This document shows positions 1 through 18,863 of a stretch of 64,000 bases of DNA, piece by piece. The notes beneath the pieces are model-generated. The model saw only the letters and a program-made list of their open reading frames with translations. It was not told where the DNA came from and made no database searches. The translations under genes and the position numbers were made by a program. Numbering within the stretch: position 1 is the first letter of the stretch; each line of letters opens with the position of its first letter. The DNA comes from Chryseobacterium lacus (GTDB lineage Bacteria > Bacteroidota > Bacteroidia > Flavobacteriales > Weeksellaceae): the NCBI RefSeq assembly GCF_003336205.1, contig NZ_QPIE01000004.1, positions 1 through 64,000 on the forward strand. The letters run 5' to 3'.

Positions 1-210
1 TAGTCCTTAACTCCTCCGGAGATTTTTTTTTGTAGCCATTTTATATGTTTTTTAGGGTTTAATAAAAACAAAATTACTAAAACGGTGAATGGGAAAAGCT
101 ACCGGAGGTTTAGTTCAACATTGTATTATTACAAGTCTTTATGCAAAGTCCCATAAACACTACATTTCCTTACCTTATTCATTAATTAGATACAACATAA
201 GTATAACAAA
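1..210. other. Intergenic left edge
   Basis: No gene is supported here. A short palindrome CTCCGGAG followed by a run of T at about 14-30 could be a rightward terminator for a gene lying left of the window. Otherwise the stretch is AT-rich and featureless. Confidence 0.4.
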
Positions 211-876: not shown

Positions 877-1680
877 ATGGCAAGACAAAAAGGCCTCATG
901 AAATACGTCGGAACAATCGGCGACGTTAGGCATTTCAAAATCAAAGGACAGGAAGGATTTTTCGCCGGTATGGTTGGCGGTCCAACTGCTGAACAGGTGA
1001 ACAATGCGCCCGAGTTCGAAAGAACAAGGGAAAATATGAACGAATTTGGCGGCTGCGCCAAAGTCGGCAAATCATTAAGAACGGCTCTGTCTGCTCTTAT
1101 GGGAAAATTTACAGATCCTCAGGTTACAGGTCGTTTGACTTCAATTATGAAGAAAATCAACCTGGAGGACGGAACCGAAGCGAGAGGTTACAGAAAGGTG
1201 GAAGTTTCAACACAGAGAAATTATCTGCTTGGATTCGAGTTCAACAAGAATCTTTCTATCTCCGGGATCTTCAATGCTCCGTATGACATTGAGCCGGATG
1301 CAGGAAGAACTTCTTCAGATTTCATCGTGGCGGCGTTTAATCCTGCTGATTTGATTTCTGCTCCTTCAGGATCCACGCACTTCAGACTGATTAACGCTTT
1401 GGCTGTTCTTTCTGATTTTTCTTACAACCCAACTACTGGAAGTTACGAGCCGGACGATATGGTGAACAACGAGTTAACCAACATCGCTTATTCTCCATAC
1501 ATTCCTTTGAATGCGGCTTATGCAGGTTCAACCATTACAGCAACACTTCCGGGAGCTCCTGTGTTGGCTGCAAACGCTTCGGTGGTTCAGTGTATCGGCA
1601 TTGAGTTCTTTCAGGAAGTGAACGGAAACTATTATCCATTTGCCTCCGGAAACTGTCTCAAAATTGAGGAAGTATTTTAG
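877..1680 (+). CDS. 'MARQKG' family protein of unknown function
   Basis: A 267-residue protein. From memory this is a family of conserved hypothetical proteins spread through Flavobacteriia that begin MARQKG; no function is known to me. The first ~95 residues carry the signature: a GTIGDVRHFK segment, a VGG, a RTRENMNEFG segment, then GKSLRTAL and a D-x-x-V-x-x-RL segment. The rest is beta-rich with GSTHFRL near residue 165 and IGIEFFQEVNG near residue 245. No signal peptide or membrane segment is seen. It is followed by a strong terminator, so it forms its own transcription unit ahead of the DUF5675 operon. A distant paralog lies at 17672-18349. A structural (phage-like) role is only a guess from its neighbours. 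Confidence 0.75.
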   Translation: MARQKGLMKYVGTIGDVRHFKIKGQEGFFAGMVGGPTAEQVNNAPEFERTRENMNEFGGCAKVGKSLRTALSALMGKFTDPQVTGRLTSIMKKINLEDGTEARGYRKVEVSTQRNYLLGFEFNKNLSISGIFNAPYDIEPDAGRTSSDFIVAAFNPADLISAPSGSTHFRLINALAVLSDFSYNPTTGSYEPDDMVNNELTNIAYSPYIPLNAAYAGSTITATLPGAPVLAANASVVQCIGIEFFQEVNGNYYPFASGNCLKIEEVF

Positions 1681-8641: not shown

Positions 8642-11600
8642 TTATTTTCCTGTATAATAGTTGTAATTAATGACTGCCTGATTGTAATCATTGAGGGCTT
8701 GCAAATGGTTTTTTCTAATTTCTACTGCCTGTGTAAAGAACTGATACATTTCCGAAAAGCCAATTTCACCGGCACGGTAACTCAACATGGCAGCATCAAA
8801 AATTTGGTCTGCCTGTATGAGACCGGTTCCTTCATAATATTTCAGCAGTTCTTCGGCCTTCATAATTTCGGTGTATGCTGTTTGTTTTTTTGTTGATAGT
8901 TCAGTTTGCTGAAAAATTAACTGCTGCTGTTGCAGTTTCACATCGGCTTCTGCGGCTTCCACTTTGGATTTATAGGCGGATTTACCAAAAATCGGGATTT
9001 CAGCACCCACAGAAAATCCTGTAATTGGGTCTTTAACCCCAAATATGCTTTGAGAAAATATGCGTCCTGAAAAATCAGGTTTGTTCTGCATTTTCTGAAT
9101 TTCAATATTGGCTTTCGAAATCTCAATATTCTGCTGTTGCAATGCGAGTGCAGGGTGAATGCTGTCTGAAATTATTTCTTCCGTCTTTATTTTATTCAGC
9201 GACTGTTTTAAAGGAAGATAATTTTCCGAAGAATTAAGGAAAAGGCTTAACTGTTGTTGCTGCGCTTTAATATCCTGCTGATTTTGTTGCAGGCGTGCCT
9301 GCAATTCCTTCATCCGTGCTTCTGCTGCAATGGCTTCCAAACCGGCTGCTTCACCTGTTTTGAAGCGAAGGTTTGCCGCTTTATACATGGAAGTATAATA
9401 TTCATCCAACTTACTATACAAATTTGCCACCTCCTGCAAATACCACAACTGATAGTAGGAAGCGCTTACTTCTTTGCGAATTACTGCGTCCAAAAGGTTT
9501 TTATTTTTCTTGTGATACTGGGTTTGTTCTTCATAAAATTTTCTTCTTGCCTTGTAAACTCCGGGCCACTGAATGGTTTGTGTTACCGCCAACTGCAATG
9601 CACCTGTCGCCTTACTTGGACGCATCTCCTCATTTTCAAGAAAAATACCTGTTTTGGGAATTTCTCTTTTGGCTTTGGCTTCAATTTCTGCTTTACTGAT
9701 TTGGGCATTATTTACGCTGTATTGCAGATTATTTTGGAAAGCGATATTTACCGCTTCTTCGGGCGAAATTCTTTGTTGGGCAAAGGCACTTCCCCCAACA
9801 AAAATCAGTAAAAATGAAATGATGGTTACAGGTTTGGACTTCAATTTTTTAAGATGTGTTTTCAAGTTATTTTTGGAATTAAAAATAATGTAAAGCAACG
9901 GCAAAACGAAAAGCGTAAGAATGGTTGCCGTAACCAAACCGCCGATAACGACTGTTGCCAACGGACGTTGCACTTCGGCACCACTACCTGTAGAAAGTGC
10001 CATCGGAAAAAATCCGAACGAAGCCACTGCTGCCGTCATCAATACCGGTCTCAAACGGATACTTGTTCCCTGAATTACCCTTCGAAGGATATTATGAACA
10101 CCCGACTGCTGCAAATCTTTGAAAGTGCTTATCAACACAATTCCATTGAGAACTGCTACACCGAAAAGTGCGATAAAACCAACACCTGCCGAAATACTGA
10201 AAGGCATTCCCCGTAACATCAACGCAAAAACACCCCCAATCGCACTCATGGGAATGGCTGTAAAAATGAGAACACTGTCTTTGAGATTTCTGAACGTAAA
10301 AAACAGCAGGACGAAAATAAGTCCTAATGCCACCGGAACTGCAATCTGCAAACGAGAGGAGGCTTCTTTTAGATTTTCGAAAGTTCCGCCATAGGTATAA
10401 TAGTAACCTGCCGGGAGAATTTTTGCATCATTCAGTTTTTTTTGTATTTCGGTTACCACACTTTCCACATCCCTGCCCTTAACATTGAAACCTACCACAA
10501 TACGGCGTTTGCCATCTTCGCGGCTGATTTGTGCGGGTCCTTCTTTAAACTCTACTGTTGCCACCTGCGAAAGCGGTATCTGTACTCCGTTTTCGCCGGG
10601 AATAAAGAGATTACTCACATCATCAATAGATGAACGGTTGATGCTGTCGAGCCGTGCAACCAAATCAAATTTTCTTTCATTTTCAAAAACAACACCTGCA
10701 CTTTCGCCTGCAAAAGCAGTGCTTACTGTATGATTAATATCCTCAATATTCATACCGTAGGAAGCAAGCCTTGCTCTGTCGTAGGTAATGGTTATTTGCG
10801 GTAAACCGTCGGTTTGCTCAATTTGCGGGTCTGTAGCACCTTCCACTGTTTTAACTACATTAGCAACTTTTGGAGCCAATTCTGCAAGTGTATCAATATT
10901 TTCACCAAAAATCTTAATGGCTACGTCCTGACGAACACCTGTCATTAACTCATTGAAACGCATTTGGATCGGTTGTGAAATTTCAAAGAAAACACCGGGT
11001 ATCATTTCTAATTTTTCCATCATTTCGGCACTCAGTTCTTCATAAGATTTTCCGCTGTTTTTCCATTCCTTTTTCGGTTTCAGGGTTACGATAAGGTCGG
11101 ACGCTTCAGGCGGCATCGGGTCTGTAGGGACTTCTGCGCTACCTGTTTTGCCAACCACGGTAATAACTTCCGGAAAAGATTTTAAAATTTTTGAAGCCTG
11201 CATTGAAGTTTCGATACTTTGTGATAATGAAGTTCCCTGTGGCAAAATGCAGTGCACTGCAAAATCACCTTCCTGAAGTTGCGGAATGAATTCGCCGCCC
11301 ATTCGTGAAAAAATTACAAGCGCAACTGTAAGTAAAGCCACTGCTGCTGCAACCACAGCGTATTTCAGTTTGATGGCTTTCTTCAACAAAGGCAGGTAAA
11401 AAGCGTGGAGTTTTTCCATCATACGGTCTGCAAAAGTTTTTTTGTCAGTAATTTTTTTAGACAAAAACAAAGCGGACATCATGGGAATATAGGTTAAAGA
11501 AAGTATGAGTGCACCAAGAATGGCAAAGGAAACGGTTTCTGCCATTGGTCGGAACATTTTGCCTTCTATACCTTGCAGAGAGAGAATTGGCAAATAGACA

Positions 11601-12970
11601 ATGAGGATAATAATCTGCCCGAATGCTGCGGAATTCATCATTTTTTTAGCACTTTTCGCTACGGCGTTGTCCATATTGGCTTGGTTGAGTTTTTTGCCTC
11701 CGTGATGGACTGCGAGAAAATGCAGGGTTGCTTCTACGATAATTACGGCACCATCCACAATCAGTCCAAAATCTATTGCACCCAAACTCATCAGGTTTGC
11801 ACTTACACCGAAAACATTCATCAATCCCAAAGCAAAAAGCATCGAAAGCGGAATAGCAGAAGCCACGATAAGACCTGCCCGTAAATTGCCTAAAAATAGA
11901 ACAAGTACGAGGATTACGATGAGTGCACCTTCCACAAGGTTTTTTTCTACGGTGCTGATTGCACGGTTTACCAAATCGGTTCTGTCCTGAAATGCCTCAA
12001 TAACAACATCCTGCGGAAGGGATTTTTGAATGGTTTCCATTTTTTCTTTTACGCGGCTCACCACTCTTGCAGAGTTTTCGCCTTTCAGCATCATTACGAT
12101 ACCGCCTACAGCTTCTTTGTCGCCATTAAAGGTTAATGCACCGTATCTCACCGCACTTCCCATCTGAACCTGTGCCACATCCTTAATGAGCACCGGAATT
12201 CCGTTTACTTTTTTAATGACAGTATTTGCAATATCATCAAGCCCCGAAATCAAGCCTATACCTCGTATAAAATAGGCATTGGGTTTTTTGTCGATATAGG
12301 CGCCTCCGGTATTCTCATTGTTTTTTTGTAAAGAAGAAAAAATGTCGGCAATGGTTACATTCATCGCTTTTAGGCGAAAGGGATTAATTGCGACTTCATA
12401 CTGTTTCAGTTTGCCACCAAAACTGTTAATTTCTGCCACACCGGGTGTTCCGTAGAGTTGGCGTGCTACAATCCAATCCTGCATCGTTCTGAGGTCTGTA
12501 GGAGAATATTTGTTTTCTGCTCCTTTTTTTGGGTGCAATACATATTGGTATATTTCACCAAGACCTGTAGAAACGGGACCAAGTTCGGGTTTGCCAATCC
12601 CCTGCGGAATTTTTTCTTCGGCTTCCTTCAGTTTTTCGTTTATTAATTGCCTTGCAAAATACACATCCACTTCTTCTTTGAAAACCACGGTAATAACCGA
12701 TAATCCAAATCTGGAAATGGACCTCATTTCTGTAATTCCGGGAATATTGGCAAGGCTTTGTTCTATTGGAAATGTGACCAACTGCTCGGTTTCCTGTGCT
12801 GCAAGTGTAGGTGTGGAAGTAATAATCTGCACCTGATTGTTGGTGATGTCGGGAACTGCATCTATGGGCAATTTTGTAGCACTATAAAGCCCCCAAATAA
12901 TGAGTGCCAAAGTAAAGAGCCCCACAATGAGTTTGTTTTTAATGCTAAACTCTATAATTCTATTAAGCAT
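8642..12970 (-). CDS. czcA: CzcA-type heavy-metal RND pump fused to TolC-like outer-membrane factor
   Basis: A 1442-residue protein. Residues ~1-1040 are a full HME-RND transporter: first TM helix near residue 15, periplasmic porter loops, and in TM4 the motif IDFGLIVDGAVIIVE that marks divalent-cation (Zn/Co/Cd) pumps rather than Cu/Ag pumps. Residues ~1044-1064 form a signal-peptide-like segment (basic KLKSK, hydrophobic core, GGSAFA). Residues 1065-1442 are an outer-membrane efflux protein with two long helical repeats. RND-OEP fusions are known in Bacteroidota. The internal signal suggests the chain is cut after residue 1064 so the channel can reach the outer membrane (inferred). It lies in an operon after DUF6660 and before the adaptor. 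Confidence 0.95.
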   Translation of the reverse strand: MLNRIIEFSIKNKLIVGLFTLALIIWGLYSATKLPIDAVPDITNNQVQIITSTPTLAAQETEQLVTFPIEQSLANIPGITEMRSISRFGLSVITVVFKEEVDVYFARQLINEKLKEAEEKIPQGIGKPELGPVSTGLGEIYQYVLHPKKGAENKYSPTDLRTMQDWIVARQLYGTPGVAEINSFGGKLKQYEVAINPFRLKAMNVTIADIFSSLQKNNENTGGAYIDKKPNAYFIRGIGLISGLDDIANTVIKKVNGIPVLIKDVAQVQMGSAVRYGALTFNGDKEAVGGIVMMLKGENSARVVSRVKEKMETIQKSLPQDVVIEAFQDRTDLVNRAISTVEKNLVEGALIVILVLVLFLGNLRAGLIVASAIPLSMLFALGLMNVFGVSANLMSLGAIDFGLIVDGAVIIVEATLHFLAVHHGGKKLNQANMDNAVAKSAKKMMNSAAFGQIIILIVYLPILSLQGIEGKMFRPMAETVSFAILGALILSLTYIPMMSALFLSKKITDKKTFADRMMEKLHAFYLPLLKKAIKLKYAVVAAAVALLTVALVIFSRMGGEFIPQLQEGDFAVHCILPQGTSLSQSIETSMQASKILKSFPEVITVVGKTGSAEVPTDPMPPEASDLIVTLKPKKEWKNSGKSYEELSAEMMEKLEMIPGVFFEISQPIQMRFNELMTGVRQDVAIKIFGENIDTLAELAPKVANVVKTVEGATDPQIEQTDGLPQITITYDRARLASYGMNIEDINHTVSTAFAGESAGVVFENERKFDLVARLDSINRSSIDDVSNLFIPGENGVQIPLSQVATVEFKEGPAQISREDGKRRIVVGFNVKGRDVESVVTEIQKKLNDAKILPAGYYYTYGGTFENLKEASSRLQIAVPVALGLIFVLLFFTFRNLKDSVLIFTAIPMSAIGGVFALMLRGMPFSISAGVGFIALFGVAVLNGIVLISTFKDLQQSGVHNILRRVIQGTSIRLRPVLMTAAVASFGFFPMALSTGSGAEVQRPLATVVIGGLVTATILTLFVLPLLYIIFNSKNNLKTHLKKLKSKPVTIISFLLIFVGGSAFAQQRISPEEAVNIAFQNNLQYSVNNAQISKAEIEAKAKREIPKTGIFLENEEMRPSKATGALQLAVTQTIQWPGVYKARRKFYEEQTQYHKKNKNLLDAVIRKEVSASYYQLWYLQEVANLYSKLDEYYTSMYKAANLRFKTGEAAGLEAIAAEARMKELQARLQQNQQDIKAQQQQLSLFLNSSENYLPLKQSLNKIKTEEIISDSIHPALALQQQNIEISKANIEIQKMQNKPDFSGRIFSQSIFGVKDPITGFSVGAEIPIFGKSAYKSKVEAAEADVKLQQQQLIFQQTELSTKKQTAYTEIMKAEELLKYYEGTGLIQADQIFDAAMLSYRAGEIGFSEMYQFFTQAVEIRKNHLQALNDYNQAVINYNYYTGK

Positions 12971-13083
12971 CCTTATTTTTTTAGGTTAAAAATGAGAGAA
13001 TAAGCATTACAGATATTATACTGCAATGCGTGGCTATAAACATAGCCGCTCTGTTCCGCAGGCAGAAACCAACGGAAAAATTA

Positions 13084-13401
13084 TTAACCTATTTTGGGTG
13101 GTTGCCAAATGCCGGAAAGTGCACCCGGCAGAAATGAGGAAGTGTAAGAAACTACCTTCTGTGAATATTTGGTAATTCCAATATTAACAGGCAGCTCAGC
13201 AACGGTAGTGGTGCTAAATTGTGCTCCACAACAGGTGCAGGTGCAAAAAGGCGTGCAGTTGTCGGAATGTTTTTGTGTTTCGGTTTTTTTTTGGTTCTGC
13301 TCTACGGTATGATTATCTCCTGGTGCCGCCACTACATCACTACAGGGTGCAGTGAGGAGGAAGGCAAAAAAAAGTGCTAATATGAACGAAAGTGAACGCA
13401 C
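13084..13401 (-). CDS. DUF6660 family small Cys-rich protein
   Basis: A 105-residue protein (a 124-residue form with ATG at 13458 is also possible). It has an N-terminal hydrophobic export signal, a polar middle, the Cys cluster CTPFCTCTCCG near residue 52, and a C-terminal LSGIWQPPK tail. I recognise it as DUF6660, a Bacteroidota family found directly upstream of czcA/cusA-type genes; a periplasmic metal-binding role is likely but unproven. The GTG at 13401 is preferred because the family starts there (RSLSFILALFF). A -7 box 4 nt ahead of it would give a leaderless transcript. It is the first gene of the metal operon, 113 nt before czcA. Confidence 0.75.
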   Translation of the reverse strand: MRSLSFILALFFAFLLTAPCSDVVAAPGDNHTVEQNQKKTETQKHSDNCTPFCTCTCCGAQFSTTTVAELPVNIGITKYSQKVVSYTSSFLPGALSGIWQPPKIG

Positions 13402-13405
13402 GGTG

Positions 13406-13413
13406 CAAAGATA
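13406..13413 (-). promoter_or_regulatory. -7 box TATCTTTG ahead of the metal operon
   Basis: Matches TAnnTTTG exactly and ends 4 nt before the GTG start at 13401. If used, the mRNA would begin at or next to the start codon. Confidence 0.5.
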
Positions 13414-13458
13414 ATAAAATTTCGGAAAAGTGGGGAAATTATTTAGTTTTTTAGACAA

Positions 13459-13678
13459 ATCACAAATAATTATCTCGGTGCCATAAATCTATCTCCATTG
13501 AAGTGAATCATATGGTCTGGAACATCCATTAACCATACTACGCTTTCTCAGGCGATATGTGCTGAATGTTTGCAGTACTTTTAAAGAAGATTTATCATTA
13601 AAAACCTTCAAGAAAAATCATGGTAGTATTAAAGAAATGTATCTAATTTTTCCTTTCTCTTTTCCCAATCCGGCATCA
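13459..13678. other. Intergenic, possible decayed AraC coding sequence
   Basis: No intact gene. Read leftward, it follows a truncated AraC-like N terminus (13679-13900), so it may hold decayed remains of that gene, but no frame shows a recognisable AraC DNA-binding motif. Confidence 0.3.
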
Positions 13679-13900
13679 TTAGAGTTTAAAATTGGCAGAA
13701 AAAGATAAATCTGAAATTGAAAGTCCAGCCAACCAAAAAATAAATTCCCCTTTTTTGCAGTGAAATTTTCGACCATTGAAACTAAATTTTACCGTTTCAC
13801 TTTGGCAATAAATATGGGTATGAAACCTAGTTTGAAAATTATCGGGAAACTGAGCTGTTGATGCGGTTTTGAACAAGATTACTTTTTGATTTTCTGCCAT
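13679..13900 (-). pseudogene. Truncated AraC-type regulator, sensor part only
   Basis: A 73-residue frame. The segment FHTHIYCQSETVKFSFNG (residues ~26-43) and KKGEFIFWLAG (49-59) resemble the cupin-like N-terminal sensor domain of AraC-family regulators, with the usual His and Glu positions. The frame stops right after this, and no helix-turn-helix domain is found in the following 220 bp in any frame. It is divergent from the acetyltransferase operon, which is where a regulator of that operon would normally lie. Either it is a remnant or a small stand-alone cupin-like protein. Confidence 0.45.
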
Positions 13901-13994
13901 ATTTATTCAAATTAAAAAATTGGTTTTAACAAAAATAGGTAATATTTGACATTACTTGCGCTATAAATGTAACAAAACACCTTTAAAATACTTT

Positions 13995-14002
13995 TAACTT
14001 TG
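13995..14002 (+). promoter_or_regulatory. -7 box TAACTTTG of the acetyltransferase operon
   Basis: Exact TAnnTTTG match 18 nt before the ATG at 14021. It rules out the earlier in-frame ATG at 14000. Confidence 0.65.
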
Positions 14003-14020
14003 CCCTATAAATTAAAGGCA

Positions 14021-14590
14021 ATGCAGGCAACAGATATTTTTGAAAGATTACAAAACGGAGAAACCATTTCTTCAAACGATGCTCAAGCGTACAAAATGCG
14101 TGAAGCTTCTTTTGCTACAAAAAAGTTGTTAGTTCAAATGAATAATGCAACGGAACCCGAAGAAATTAGAAGTTTTTTGAGCCAAATTACAGGAACAGAA
14201 ATCGATGAAAGTGTAATGGTTTTTACGCCTTTGCACATCAACTACGGAAAACACACGAAAATTGGTAAAAATGTTTTCATCAATTTCGATTGCGTTTTTC
14301 TGGATTTAGGTGGAATTACCATTGAAAACAATGTACAGATTGCCCCGAAAGTGAGTTTGCTTACCGAAAGTCATCCGCTAAATCCTGCCGAAAGACAATC
14401 ATTAATTCCGAAATCTATTCACATCAAAAAAAATGCGTGGATTGGTGCAAATGCTACCATTTTGCAAGGTGTTACGATTGGAGAAAACGCAGTTGTTGCA
14501 GCAGGTTCGGTGGTTTCAAAAGATGTTCCCGACAATGTAGTGGTGGGTGGAATTCCTGCAAAAATTATTAAAGAAATTAAATCAATATAA
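14021..14590 (+). CDS. Sugar O-acetyltransferase (LacA/NodL/Maa type, hexapeptide repeat)
   Basis: A 189-residue left-handed beta-helix acyltransferase that moves acetyl from acetyl-CoA to a sugar hydroxyl. The N-terminal helical Mac domain (residues ~1-50) is followed by hexapeptide repeats: [26 protein letters not shown] has the layout of the LacA/Maa family, [11 protein letters not shown] carries the catalytic His, and [20 protein letters not shown] gives the last coils; [12 protein letters not shown] closes. The start at 14021 is chosen from the promoter position. It is the first gene of a three-gene unit (1-nt gap to the lipoprotein gene). The substrate is not determined. Confidence 0.9.
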
Positions 14591-15070: not shown

Positions 15071-16111
15071 ATGAAAAATATAGCAATTATTGCAATCGCA
15101 TTTCTGCTGACCATCGGACAATCATTTGCACAAAATAAAAATTCAAAAGAAATGAATACATCAAAAGAACATTATACTTTTACATTAAGCGATAAAGTTA
15201 CTCGTCAAAAAGTATCTTTCAAAAACCGTTATGGCATCACGCTTTCAGGCGATTTGTATCTTCCAAAAAATGCAGAAAACGAAAAATTATCAGCTTTAGC
15301 AATCAGCGGACCTTTTGGAGCGGTAAAAGAACAATCTTCTGGACTTTACGCCAACGAAATGGCAAGAAGAGGTTTTGCAGTGGTGGCGTTTGACCCATCT
15401 TACACTGGCGAAAGTAGTGGCGAACCGAGAAATTTAGCTTCGCCAGACATTAATACCGAAGATTTCAGTGCAGCAGTTGACTTTTTAGGACTTCAAAAAA
15501 ATGTGGACAGGGAAAAAATCGGCATTATCGGAATTTGTGGTTTCGGAGGATTTGCCTTGAACGCAACCGCTATCGATAAACGTGTGAAAGCAGTTGCTAC
15601 TTCCACAATGTACGATATGACCAGAGTAATGTCGAAAGGTTATAACGATGCAACAACATTAGAACAACGCACAAAAACTTTGGAACAATTAGGCGAACAA
15701 CGCTGGAAAGATGCAGAAGCAGGAACATTTGCTTACGATTCAGAATACAATAAAGCGCCGAAAGATGATGACCCACAATTTATAAAAGAATATTACGATT
15801 ATTATCGCACGCCAAGAGGCTATCACGAACGTTCGGTAAATTCAGGAAATTCTTGGATGGCAACTACACCTTTATCATTTATGAATATGCCTATTTTAAC
15901 GTACATCAAAGAAATTTCGCCACGACCGCTTTTGATTATTGCAGGCGAGAAAGCACATTCAAGATATTTTAGTGAAACCGCATTTGGAAATGCAAACGAA
16001 CCAAAAGAATTAGTCATCGTTCCCAACGCTGTACACATAGATTTTTATGACAAAATTGAGGTTATTCCGTTTGACAAATTGGAGCGTTTCTTTAGAAATA
16101 ATTTGAAATAA
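15071..16111 (+). CDS. Exported alpha/beta hydrolase
   Basis: A 346-residue protein with a cleavable signal peptide (LTIGQSFAQ at residues ~14-22). The alpha/beta-hydrolase core shows ISGPFGAVKEQS (oxyanion region), FDPSYTGESSGEPR, the nucleophile elbow GICGFGG with Cys in place of Ser, RPLLIIAGEKAHS (acid region) and a final PNAVHIDFYD with the catalytic His. Related YcjY-like proteins share the G-x-C-G elbow. Substrate unknown. It follows the lipoprotein gene by 11 nt and ends the operon; the first copy of the 82-bp direct repeat starts 24 nt after its stop. Confidence 0.88.
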   Translation: MKNIAIIAIAFLLTIGQSFAQNKNSKEMNTSKEHYTFTLSDKVTRQKVSFKNRYGITLSGDLYLPKNAENEKLSALAISGPFGAVKEQSSGLYANEMARRGFAVVAFDPSYTGESSGEPRNLASPDINTEDFSAAVDFLGLQKNVDREKIGIIGICGFGGFALNATAIDKRVKAVATSTMYDMTRVMSKGYNDATTLEQRTKTLEQLGEQRWKDAEAGTFAYDSEYNKAPKDDDPQFIKEYYDYYRTPRGYHERSVNSGNSWMATTPLSFMNMPILTYIKEISPRPLLIIAGEKAHSRYFSETAFGNANEPKELVIVPNAVHIDFYDKIEVIPFDKLERFFRNNLK

Positions 16112-16135
16112 AAAATAGCGAAAAGAAGGGCACCC

Positions 16136-16216
16136 GCTAATAACTAAGCTTTCGTTGGGCTTGAAAAACCAACAATGAAAGCCTGTTGAACGGAACCTTC
16201 GGGGGCTTTTTTGGCA
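16136..16216 (+). repeat. ~82-bp direct repeat, copy 1
   Basis: About 91% identical to 17333-17413. It contains a bulged hairpin GCTTTC-GTTGG/CCAAC-aat-GAAAGC and a terminator-like stem AAAGCC/GGCTTTTTT that share the GAAAGCC segment, so only one of the two can form at a time. It starts 24 nt after the hydrolase stop codon. Confidence 0.9.
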
Positions 16217-16252
16217 GTCTATGGAGTTATCGTTTTTAGAATTTAGAGGTAC

Positions 16253-16286
16253 AAAGCAGTTTTTTCAGAAGGACTGCTTTTTTTTG
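16253..16286 (+). terminator. Rho-independent terminator
   Basis: Perfect 8-bp stem AAAGCAGT/ACTGCTTT with a 12-nt loop and a run of nine T. It lies 36 nt after repeat copy 1. Confidence 0.85.
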
Positions 16287-16580
16287 TGGCATTTGGTAGC
16301 CTTTATGAGTGTTTTCTTCGGTTTTTCTTCGCTGCAGCATATAAATTCCCTTACCCGCAAAGGTTATTTTACAGACAGAGGTTGAATAACGAAAAGATAT
16401 TCCGGTGGCGGACCGCGCTGTCCGAAAACGGCAATGGTTATCAGGTTTCCCTCCTTGCAGCACCGGCATTTATTTACGCTGCGCTTTATGTTTGTCTCCA
16501 AACCAAATACCGCGATTGGGTGATGCTTCCTGGGTCAGTATGAAAGAGGATTTACAATGCCGCACGGTTAAGTAATTATG
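16287..16580. other. Intergenic ahead of the HEPN gene
   Basis: Open frames on both strands overlap here (up to 85 codons), but none shows family features, an export signal or a promoter. The base composition is less AT-rich than the HEPN gene that follows. It may be decayed coding DNA. Confidence 0.35.
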
Positions 16581-16588
16581 TATATTTG
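16581..16588 (+). promoter_or_regulatory. -7 box TATATTTG of the HEPN gene
   Basis: Exact TAnnTTTG match 107 nt ahead of the HEPN gene start and directly upstream of two operator-like palindromes. Confidence 0.5.
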
Positions 16589-16599
16589 GTAAAATAAAG

Positions 16600-16664
16600 T
16601 ATGACGTTTGTCATACATATCTCCCGCCCGGTGTTTGTATATTATATGATTTTGTCATACATAT
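16600..16664 (+). promoter_or_regulatory. Two operator-like palindromes upstream of the HEPN gene
   Basis: TATGAC-gttt-GTCATA (16600-16615) is a perfect 6+6 palindrome. A second, near-perfect site TATGATTTTGTCATA lies at about 16646-16660. Both share the 14-mer TTTGTCATACATAT (16607-16620 and 16651-16664), 44 nt apart, about four helical turns. They lie between the -7 box and the ATG at 16696. Confidence 0.6.
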
Positions 16665-16695
16665 ATACAAGTTACGTGCAATATATTACAAGAAT

Positions 16696-17325
16696 ATGTC
16701 TAAAAGAAGCGAGTTCAAGGATGATCTTGAAAAAATTGTTAAGATTTTCTTTCTTTGTAAAGAATCCTATCTAGTGTTAAGAGAATTGTATAAAACTCAA
16801 GATACTTCTTCTTACATACTAGACTTAAAATTTAAGAACTCGTTTTTCATTTTGACCAAAGTGAATTACTGGAGAATTATTGTGCTACAATTGTCCAAAC
16901 TGTACATCGATAATGAACGCTATAACATTCTAAAATTTCTCACAAAATGTAAGAAAGGAAATTATTTCCACTCATTAAAAATTAACGAAGAGTTTATTCT
17001 TACTGAAATAAATAAAATTCAAGGACATAAAGACGTTATTTCACATATAAAATTACAACGTGACAAATTATTTGCTCACGAAGATGCATTTAATTCAACG
17101 ATAGTTAATGATATTACACTTGATGAGACAAAAAATTTAATTGACTTGTGTCAAAATATTATTTTCGAGATCTATGGGGAGTTTTTTGACACTCATTATG
17201 AATTCGAAGTAGCAAATTCAGCGGAATGGAATCTTAAAAATATTTTGAAAAACCTCAACGAGAGAAATATTCAAAGACTTGAAGAACGAAAAGACATTGG
17301 GAAATTATTGAATCGCAAAAAATAA
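16696..17325 (+). CDS. HEPN-domain protein, AbiU2-like
   Basis: A 209-residue, all-helical, AT-rich protein. The central WRIIVLQLSKLYIDNERYNILKFL (residues ~56-79, split here as WRIIVLQLSKLYI and a following DNERYNILKFL) and RDKLFAHED near residue 123 match HEPN proteins of the AbiU2 type. R-x5-H in RDKLFAH is the HEPN ribonuclease signature. Such proteins act as RNA-cutting toxins or abortive-infection factors. No MNT or other antitoxin gene is adjacent. It lies alone between the two 82-bp direct repeats, behind a promoter with two operator-like palindromes. The toxin role is inferred from family and context. Confidence 0.7.
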   Translation: MSKRSEFKDDLEKIVKIFFLCKESYLVLRELYKTQDTSSYILDLKFKNSFFILTKVNYWRIIVLQLSKLYIDNERYNILKFLTKCKKGNYFHSLKINEEFILTEINKIQGHKDVISHIKLQRDKLFAHEDAFNSTIVNDITLDETKNLIDLCQNIIFEIYGEFFDTHYEFEVANSAEWNLKNILKNLNERNIQRLEERKDIGKLLNRKK

Positions 17326-17332
17326 TATCACA

Positions 17333-17413
17333 GCTAATAAATAAAATTTCGTCGGACTTGAAAAGCCAACAATGAAAGCCTGTTGAACGGAACCTTCGGG
17401 AGCTTTTTTGGCA
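17333..17413 (+). repeat. ~82-bp direct repeat, copy 2
   Basis: About seven differences from copy 1 at 16136-16216. Differences cluster in the 5' half, while the stretch from CCAACAATGAAAGCC through the T run is nearly identical. It starts 7 nt after the HEPN stop codon. Confidence 0.9.
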
Positions 17414-17671
17414 TTATGGGTTTATCGAAGAAGGATTTTAAAGATTTACAGGAGACTTTCAGAAAGGTCTCCAGCTGCGCGAAGTGTCCTCACTTCGTGC
17501 CTCCAACGATCACACTGCTACCGAACGATTGTATCGTGGAGTCATAAACTAAAACAAAAGCCAGCTTTTAGCGGTTGGATTTTACCGCGATACCAAATGC
17601 TGAGTAACGAATAATACCTCTACCTAAATCTTCCAAAACATGTGGCTGCCAAACACCAGCACCTCCCAAAA
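17414..17671. other. Intergenic with further hairpins
   Basis: No supported gene. Stem-loops include GGAGAC/GTCTCC at about 17450-17471, the 28-bp palindromic repeat at 17474-17501, and CCAACGAT/ATCGTGG just after it. Confidence 0.5.
17474..17501. repeat. 28-bp palindromic repeat, copy 1
   Basis: Identical to 18836-18863. The core GCGAAGTG-tcct-CACTTCGT is a hairpin. A related palindrome (GAAG..CACTTC) is at 18904-18927. Confidence 0.85.
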
Positions 17672-18349
17672 CTACCCAACTACCACCGCCGTTTTCCCGC
17701 CCAACAGGAAGTCATCTGCGTCATAAAACCGGATCAGCGCAAATTTCAGGTAATGCGCTTGCACAGACTCAAATCCCTCCTCCTCAGAAATAATAAACTC
17801 AGAACAGGGAAGCGAAACCTCAAAAACAGCATCCACAAACTCCAGCGGATCCTGCCCCTCATCAGGATTGATAAACCGCAGCGTTACCACCGCTTTCGTA
17901 CTACGTGCAGGAAGACGGTCAAAAAACAGCGTCCGCTTTTCATAATCATAGCGGCATCTCTTTCCGTCACCGGTGTTCCATACAAAATCGTCAAGGATTT
18001 TCCCGCTCTCACCATGCTGCAGCCCAAGTTGCACCGTCCGCTCCCCCTTGGAAGATACGGGATCCAGCTTCATAATGTCGTGAAGCATCTTCGCCACTCT
18101 CCCGTGAACGATCGGATCACGGAAATCCTTTACAAAAGGCTGGAGAGCCCGCCGCAGTTTTCTGCCAAATTTTGAACAGCGCCCGAATTCAGAGGCGTTT
18201 TTTCTTACATTCACATATTTTTCATCTTTCAGGATCTTTTCGCCGTCAAACCCACCCGGATTCCGCACGATAATTTTGCCGTTCATTTTATAAAACGAAA
18301 GCCCATCCATCTTTCCCTTAAATTTAAGAATACCTATAAGCTCTGCCAT
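17672..18349 (-). CDS. Distant paralog of the 'MARQKG' protein
   Basis: A 225-residue protein of unknown function. Its N-terminal half lines up with the 877-1680 protein: start MAELIGILKFKG, FYKMNGKIIVRNPGG, VRKNASEFGRCSKFGRKLR and FRDPIVHGRVAKML, each with a counterpart in the same order and spacing. The C-terminal half differs and is beta-rich, ending near FLLGGKTAVVVG. No signal peptide or membrane segment. The ATG at 18349 is chosen because the alignment with the paralog starts there; the longer frame would run through four 11-bp tandem repeats. Unlike the other copy, it has no DUF5675 or holin-like neighbours. Confidence 0.7.
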   Translation of the reverse strand: MAELIGILKFKGKMDGLSFYKMNGKIIVRNPGGFDGEKILKDEKYVNVRKNASEFGRCSKFGRKLRRALQPFVKDFRDPIVHGRVAKMLHDIMKLDPVSSKGERTVQLGLQHGESGKILDDFVWNTGDGKRCRYDYEKRTLFFDRLPARSTKAVVTLRFINPDEGQDPLEFVDAVFEVSLPCSEFIISEEEGFESVQAHYLKFALIRFYDADDFLLGGKTAVVVG

Positions 18350-18383
18350 GTTATTGATAATTTTAGTGATTCTCAAAGGTAAT

Positions 18384-18427
18384 AAATAGTATGGATATAG
18401 CATGAATATAGTATGGATATAGTATGC
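18384..18427. repeat. Four 11-bp tandem repeats
   Basis: Units AAATAGTATGG, ATATAGCATGA, ATATAGTATGG and ATATAGTATGC follow without gaps, one helical turn each. They lie 35-78 nt upstream of the paralog gene's ATG, where an operator or iteron-like protein-binding array would be placed. Confidence 0.85.
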
Positions 18428-18810: not shown

Positions 18811-18835
18811 AGAAAACAAAAGCATATAAACCCCC

Positions 18836-18863
18836 GCTGCGCGAAGTGTCCTCACTTCGTGCC
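18836..18863. repeat. 28-bp palindromic repeat, copy 2
   Basis: Exact match of 17474-17501 in the same orientation. The two copies bracket the paralog gene and the tRNA. Confidence 0.85.

What the first reader, a model, noticed from the sequence alone, without database searches (positions are those of the whole stretch)
16136..17413. Solitary HEPN gene bracketed by ~82-bp direct repeats
Copies at 16136-16216 and 17333-17413 are ~91% identical, and each follows the stop codon of a gene (24 and 7 nt). The enclosed AT-rich HEPN/AbiU2-like gene looks like a transferable defence cassette. The repeats could be ends of a cassette, recombination sites, or repeated terminators.
Basis: partly seen in the sequence, partly recalled or inferred. 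Interest (0 to 1): 0.65.

Follow-up and report, generated by a model that had tools for sequence, protein, structure and literature searches.

The report
Element ends flanking an integron HEPN cassette
The two repeats are worn ends of a mobile element (IS91-type transposase plus an integron-like recombinase) that inserts at one exact base step inside the recombination sites of gene cassettes, and the HEPN gene between them is a cassette sitting at an orphan integron insertion site.

Summary
The repeats are real (81 nt, 91% identical; 12 copies in the genome), but they are not the two ends of one cassette and do not score as terminators. Each is the 3' end of a ~2.3-2.7 kb element encoding a tyrosine recombinase and an IS91-family transposase; both window copies are truncated remnants of different element variants. 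Across Bacteroidota the ends are base-exact, and the element splits integron attC sites at the R'' box (AA^C), always in one orientation. Evidence: 55 of 102 distinct ends abut a cassette whose start and end match over 9 nt (permuted mean 2.4); 99 of 100 opposite flanks begin with the expected C; and two predicted uninterrupted attC sites exist in other replicons (aadS 99.5-100%, catB 90-92% identity). The HEPN_AbiU2 gene lies 24 nt after an attI-like site found elsewhere beside integrase genes, so it reads as the first cassette of an integron remnant that has lost its integrase. Neighbouring cassettes include Thoeris and AbiJ; on plasmids, tet(X2), aadS, catB. That the element's recombinase performs the insertion is inferred. 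The IS91-XerD pairing with tet(X)/catB was already published; I found no report of attC targeting in the open-access library searched.

The parts
1..118 (-). 5' (left) end of another, assembly-broken copy of the element, ending GGTTTAGTTCAA|C; attC-like sequence follows from 119
   Evidence: Exact match to the left-end consensus GTTGAACTAAACCTCCGGTAGC; the contig starts inside this copy
16131..16140 (+). R''-like box CACCCGCTAA behind the alpha/beta-hydrolase gene, abutting element remnant 1
   Evidence: Same position as R'' in other junctions; no matching cassette start found upstream, so the hydrolase is not shown to be a cassette
16141..16547 (-). Element remnant 1: 3' end (hairpin, GTTGAAC box) plus a decayed piece of the IS91 transposase 3' region
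   Evidence: blastn 77-83% to elements L132/L087/L091 up to 16474, tblastx to about 16547; RE motif exact on the minus strand
16581..16671 (+). attI-like site: TATATTTGG (Bacteroidota -7 promoter-like box), GTATGAC/GTCATAC repeats, ending ATATACAAG^TT
   Evidence: Aligned with 9 loci; in L236, L237 and L240 it lies just behind the 3' end of a tyrosine integrase gene, and cassettes start exactly at ^TT
16672..17337 (+). HEPN gene cassette, 666 nt, from the attI crossover to the end of R''
   Evidence: Starts at G^TT of the attI-like site and ends at an R'' abutting an element end; the start/end match is imperfect
16696..17325 (+). HEPN_AbiU2 family gene, 209 aa, with RDKLFAH (RX5H-type) motif
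   Evidence: Pfam E 2.9e-13; no PADLOC model matched
17328..17337 (+). R'' box of the HEPN cassette (TCACAGCTAA), split at AA^
   Evidence: Position equals that of 55 verified cassette ends elsewhere
17338..17471 (-). Element remnant 2: 3' end only, of a different element variant, degenerate at its tip
   Evidence: 92% to L120 element positions 31-136

Best explanation
The repeats are 3' ends of a mobile element that carries a tyrosine recombinase ('rec') and an IS91-family HUH transposase, both antisense to the cassette genes. Shown by sequence: the element has base-exact ends (G|TTGAACTAAACC... and ...CTTAGTTA|TTRNNNG), interrupts integron attC sites at the R'' box (AA^C) in one orientation without a duplicated target, and when its two ends are joined they form an attC-like palindrome (R'' GTTCAAC, imperfect hairpin, R' TTGAAC). 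The window holds an integron remnant: element remnant 1, an orphan attI-like site, the HEPN_AbiU2 gene as first cassette, element remnant 2. Inferred: the element excises as a circle, rec recombines its attC-like junction with the G^TT step of attC R'' boxes, and the HUH transposase supplies single-stranded DNA or acts in a replicative step. The HEPN gene is most likely an abortive-infection-type RNase that entered as an integron cassette and could be transcribed from a promoter inside the attI-like site (inferred from a TATATTTG box).
For: Own-genome copies sit beside rec and IS91 tnp genes or fragments (IS91 profile 420.7 bits on the plasmid homologue). 58 rec loci inspected: the left-end motif was found in 57, with the base before it G wherever flank existed; 99 of 100 distinct left flanks begin with C in array orientation, and 52 of 100 carry a strict attC L'' motif against 6 of 2000 random positions; stem pairing of left flanks exceeds random positions (Mann-Whitney P 1e-18). 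55 of 102 distinct right ends have the exact 9-nt inverse at the far side of the adjacent gene, permuted mean 2.4, maximum 7 in 200; cassette ORFs lie in array orientation in 50 of 53, stop codons mostly 10-17 nt before the junction. Empty sites: joined flanks at aadS match R. anatipestifer, E. stercoris and two Bacteroides plasmids without interruption at 99.5-100%; at catB, 90-92% over the whole 263 nt in Empedobacter and Riemerella plasmids. Joined ends fold into attC-like hairpins. Internally deleted copies of about 220-960 bp keep both ends. attI-like site.
Against: No excision or integration was observed. The rec clade lacks the IntI-specific insertion, so it is not a canonical integron integrase, and nothing separates rec from Tnp as the enzyme that inserts. 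47 of 102 right ends lack the exact 9-nt partner within 3.5 kb. In the window itself the HEPN start (TTACGTGCAA) and end (rc TTAGCTGTGA) agree poorly, and no integrase lies near its attI-like site. Most solo attI-like sites examined also lack an integrase nearby.
Confidence: 0.8

Rival explanations
1. The IS91-type HUH transposase alone does the insertion: attC hairpins, exposed as single strands, are its preferred target, and rec is a resolvase or passenger.
For: IS91 transposases act on single strands and duplicate no target (review PMC9330008); the element's 3' end is a hairpin as expected for an IS91 origin end; internal-deletion copies keep both ends.
Against: The boundary falls exactly on the G^TT step used by integron recombinases; the joined ends form an attC-like palindrome; classical IS91 targets are tetranucleotides (GTTC/CTTG, own knowledge), and the flanks here show R'' (YYTAA) and an attC body instead.
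Confidence: 0.25
2. The repeats are two ends of a single transferable HEPN defence cassette or recombination sites framing it.
For: Two direct copies frame one gene; cassettes bearing this end are common in the genome.
Against: The two copies belong to different element variants; the first lies before an IS remnant and an attI-like site, not at the HEPN cassette boundary; intact elements elsewhere carry one such end behind the transposase.
Confidence: 0.05
3. Repeated transcription terminators that spread with 3' ends of genes.
For: Each copy follows a stop codon closely and ends in GGGGGCTTTTTT.
Against: The terminator scan finds none in either repeat; the repeat is the end of an intact mobile element in many genomes; the proximity to stop codons is that of attC sites in cassettes.
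Confidence: 0.04

Closest known systems
IS91 family insertion sequences (including members with an added tyrosine recombinase gene; ISCR elements)
   Same: Y2/HUH transposase profile met, no target duplication, hairpin at the 3' end; a tandem annotated ISWz1/ISMno24 of the IS91 family is reported in Elizabethkingia ICEs (PMC10973501)
   Different: Target is the R'' box of integron attC sites at a fixed base step; the joined ends form an attC-like site
tetX-catB11-IS91-XerD resistance cluster of Chryseobacterium (PMC11194056)
   Same: Same gene pairing beside tet(X) and catB
   Different: That paper reports co-location in the passages read; attC sites, element ends and target were not mentioned there
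IS1111-attC insertion sequences (IS110/IS1111 type) and group IIC-attC introns
   Same: Mobile elements that specialise in integron attC sites
   Different: Other enzymes (DEDD transposase; reverse transcriptase/ribozyme); here IS91 Tnp plus tyrosine recombinase, in Bacteroidota
Integron gene cassettes and sedentary chromosomal integrons
   Same: R''/R' matched cassette ends, attC bodies, attI-like site, cassettes in one orientation, defence genes among the cargo
   Different: Integrases found here lack the IntI-specific insertion; one type has attI behind its 3' end, as in 'reverse integrons' of Treponema (papers found); in the window the integrase is missing
HEPN_AbiU2 (abortive infection AbiU2) proteins
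   Same: Pfam match above cut-off and RX4-6H motif
   Different: Solitary, no AbiU1-like partner seen in the flanking ORFs; activity untested

Membership tests
IS91 family element | Y2/HUH (IS91-type) transposase | tested here: met
   PF04986 5.2e-59 in own genome; NF033538 420.7 bits against cut-off 125; the window copies keep only a decayed 3' fragment
IS91 family element | No target site duplication | tested here: met
   Joined flanks equal uninterrupted sites
IS91 family element | Insertion next to GTTC/CTTG-type tetranucleotides | tested here: not met
   Flanks are R'' (YYTAA) and attC body; the definition is from own knowledge
IS91 family element | Rolling-circle transposition | not testable with these tools
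   No experiment
Integron integrase (IntI) | Tyrosine recombinase catalytic residues | tested here: met
   R, K, HxxR, H and Y conserved in the rec alignments
Integron integrase (IntI) | IntI-specific additional insertion | tested here: not met
   Gap against IntI1, class 3 integrase and IntI4; TIGR02249 174 bits, below the cut-off of 265
Integron gene cassette (HEPN) | Begins at a G^TT crossover, single ORF in array orientation, R'' shortly after the stop codon | tested here: met
   attI-like ACAAG^TT at 16671/16672; R'' at 17328-17337, 12 nt after the stop codon
Integron gene cassette (HEPN) | Start complementary to R'' at the end | tested here: inconclusive
   Met in 55 of 102 element-adjacent cassettes, but only TTA plus partial similarity for HEPN
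Functional integron | Integrase gene adjacent to attI | tested here: not met
   None near 16581-16671; present for the same site type in L236, L237 and L240
IS1111-attC group | IS110/IS1111 DEDD transposase | tested here: not met
   The element encodes IS91 Tnp and a tyrosine recombinase
HEPN_AbiU2 | Profile match and RX4-6H motif | tested here: met
   50.1 bits against cut-off 26.8; RDKLFAH in the translation
HEPN_AbiU2 | Anti-phage activity | not testable with these tools
   Needs a plaque assay

The most novel reading that the evidence does not exclude
The element is a self-encoding gene cassette: its recombinase, a separate clade from IntI, uses the element's own attC-like junction and the R'' box of resident attC sites, i.e. 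it reads attC from the side that integron integrases do not normally cut, and so builds, reshuffles and spreads arrays of defence and resistance cassettes across Bacteroidota, with the IS91 nuclease supplying the single strand that must fold.
Probability: 0.45. Interest if true: 0.75.

Novelty: new variant of a known kind. Interest (0 to 1): 0.6.

Why it matters
It turns a loosely described 'IS91-XerD' pair, known beside tet(X) and catB in clinical Bacteroidota, into a defined element with exact ends and an exact target, which can be tested. It shows that tet(X2), aadS, catB, OXA and MYO-1 genes, and defence systems such as Thoeris, AbiJ and perhaps this HEPN gene, lie in integron cassette arrays in these bacteria, and it names candidate recombinases for the unexplained homology-free uptake of attC-ended resistance genes in Riemerella (PMC13148043).

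Tried and rejected
Rfam: only a tRNA near the locus. Terminator scan: no hit in either repeat. HEPN protein in plasmids: none; its best family relative (63%, with an in-frame stop) has no repeats around it. Strain-level presence/absence of the 1.2-kb segment: only one congener, a fragmented draft whose contig ends at the neighbouring gene. Hydrolase gene 15071-16111 as a cassette: no matching start upstream even with two mismatches over 12 nt. A first attC scan with strict pairing missed most sites because R' belongs to the next cassette; replaced by start/end matching and left-flank statistics. Empty-site search in E. coli genomes: no match. The tree's deep branches are long and warned about, so only the separateness of the rec and integrase clades is used.

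Full report
Observation. The 81-nt direct repeats are present as described and recur 12 times in the 2.38-Mb draft genome, several near contig ends or in clusters. Alignment of the copies shows a variable stretch followed by a conserved one: TAACTAAGCTTTCGT..., a hairpin, GAAAGCC, GTTGAACGGAACCTTCGG, then two variants of downstream sequence. Each copy lies just behind a gene.

What the repeat belongs to. Nearby lie fragments or whole copies of a tyrosine recombinase gene (rec) and an IS91-family transposase gene, always antisense to the cassette genes. In complete copies (plasmid p63039 of Myroides; 77 loci from a scan of named genomes) the repeat is the 3' end of a 2.3-2.7 kb element: rec, tnp, end. 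The other end is GGTTTAGTTCAA| in array orientation, base-exact in 57 of the 58 loci inspected. Internally deleted copies of about 220-960 bp keep both ends. One case (L108) shows one element joined to the next end to end at exactly the predicted bases.

Where it inserts. In p63039 the resistance genes are separated either by attC-like sites or by this element. The element splits the attC at the R'' box...YYTAA|element|CAnnGTATTGGC...G|TT next gene. Tests: (a) in integron cassettes the first bases are the inverse of the R'' at the end; 55 of 102 distinct element ends have the exact 9-nt inverse at the far side of the adjacent gene, against a mean of 2.4 and maximum of 7 when targets are permuted. 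(b) 53 such cassettes are 318-2847 nt long; the longest ORF is in array orientation in 50, with stop codons mostly 10-17 nt from the junction. (c) 99 of 100 distinct left flanks begin with C; 52 carry a strict L'' motif against 6 of 2000 random positions; stem pairing is above random with P 1e-18. (d) Empty sites: joining the flanks of the element in the aadS attC gives 211 nt that occur uninterrupted at 99.5-100% in plasmids of Riemerella, Empedobacter and two Bacteroides; the catB site likewise occurs at 90-92% over all 263 nt in Empedobacter and Riemerella plasmids. No duplication is involved.

The enzyme. Rec has the catalytic residues, matches the integron-integrase profile in two stretches below its cut-off, resembles XerA-like recombinases and IntI4, lacks the IntI-specific insertion and forms its own clade apart from the host-type integrases. 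When the element's ends are joined they make an attC-like palindrome with an imperfect hairpin. The boundary lies on the G^TT step. I infer that rec performs the insertion, using the element's own site and the R'' box; the HUH transposase could supply single-stranded DNA. Nothing here separates rec from Tnp experimentally.

The window. Remnant 1 (16141 to about 16547) is a 3' end plus decayed transposase sequence; remnant 2 (17338-17471) is the 3' end of another variant. Between them, 16581-16671 matches a conserved site found at the 3' side of integrase genes in L236, L237 and L240, from which cassettes start exactly at ACAAG^TT; in several loci the cassette start and end match. It carries TATATTTG, which fits the Bacteroidota -7 promoter box (own knowledge). 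The HEPN gene starts 24 nt behind it and ends 12 nt before the junction with remnant 2, so it reads as the first cassette. Its start/end match is poor and no integrase is near, so this integron is a relic. Another copy's left end lies at window 1-118, where the contig is broken.

Cargo. In the same genome a Thoeris operon (ThsA with two ThsB) forms a 2.6-kb cassette and AbiJ an 855-nt cassette, both with exact end matches. Of 49 proteins scanned (48 cassette proteins and the HEPN protein) several match PADLOC models (ThsA, type II and type IV restriction enzymes, AbiJ, NsnA, PD-T4-2 and candidate PDC families), alongside ordinary functions. The HEPN protein matches Pfam HEPN_AbiU2 but no PADLOC model.

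Known versus new. The gene pairing IS91-XerD beside tetX and catB11 has been described as a resistance cluster (PMC11194056), and a tandem of IS91-family ISWz1/ISMno24 in Elizabethkingia ICEs (PMC10973501). In the searches made of the open-access library I found no statement that it targets attC sites. Other attC specialists are known (IS1111-attC, group IIC-attC introns). The Riemerella study (PMC13148043) reports homology-free integration of a gene with a 140-bp attC-like 3' region by an unknown mechanism; the recombinases described here are candidates, untested. I therefore file it as a new variant of a known kind.

Limits. Draft genomes, sequence comparison only; subscription literature was not searchable; the attI label rests on position and cassette starts, not on experiment.

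Noticed in passing
L009 about 11525-14137 (own genome C27): A complete Thoeris system (ThsA and two ThsB) as a single 2.6-kb integron-type cassette with exact 9-nt start/end match.
   Followed up: partly
L075 10877-16004 (own genome C26:342.9-348 kb): A chromosomal integron: 356-aa tyrosine integrase without the IntI-specific insertion, an lnu-like nucleotidyltransferase, tet(X) and catB genes, a canonical attC, then the IS91/rec element. In relatives of this integrase attC-like sites lie on the divergent side (16 against 2).
   Followed up: partly
L236, L237, L240: A second integrase type in the family with its attI-like site behind the 3' end of the gene ('reverse' arrangement); most sites of this type that were examined have no integrase nearby.
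   Followed up: partly
L071 2612-16309 (Myroides plasmid p63039): GNAT, blaOXA, MYO-1, aadS, catB and tet(X2) lie in one array separated by attC-like sites or by the IS91/rec element; tet(X2) is itself flanked by matched cassette ends.
   Followed up: partly
L198 3001-5050 (Rhizobium plasmid): A tyrosine recombinase directly before an IS91 transposase also occurs in Rhizobium; its ends and target were not examined.
   Followed up: no
window 17471-17501 and 18833-18863: A second short repeat (CTGCGCGAAGTGTCCTCACTTCGTGCC, hairpin-forming), 97% identical, one copy beside a tRNA; not explained.
   Followed up: no
window 877-1680, 17672-18403; L010 10273-11028: Paralogues of a roughly 250-aa protein (17672-18403 has no Pfam match) recur next to these element copies.
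   Followed up: no
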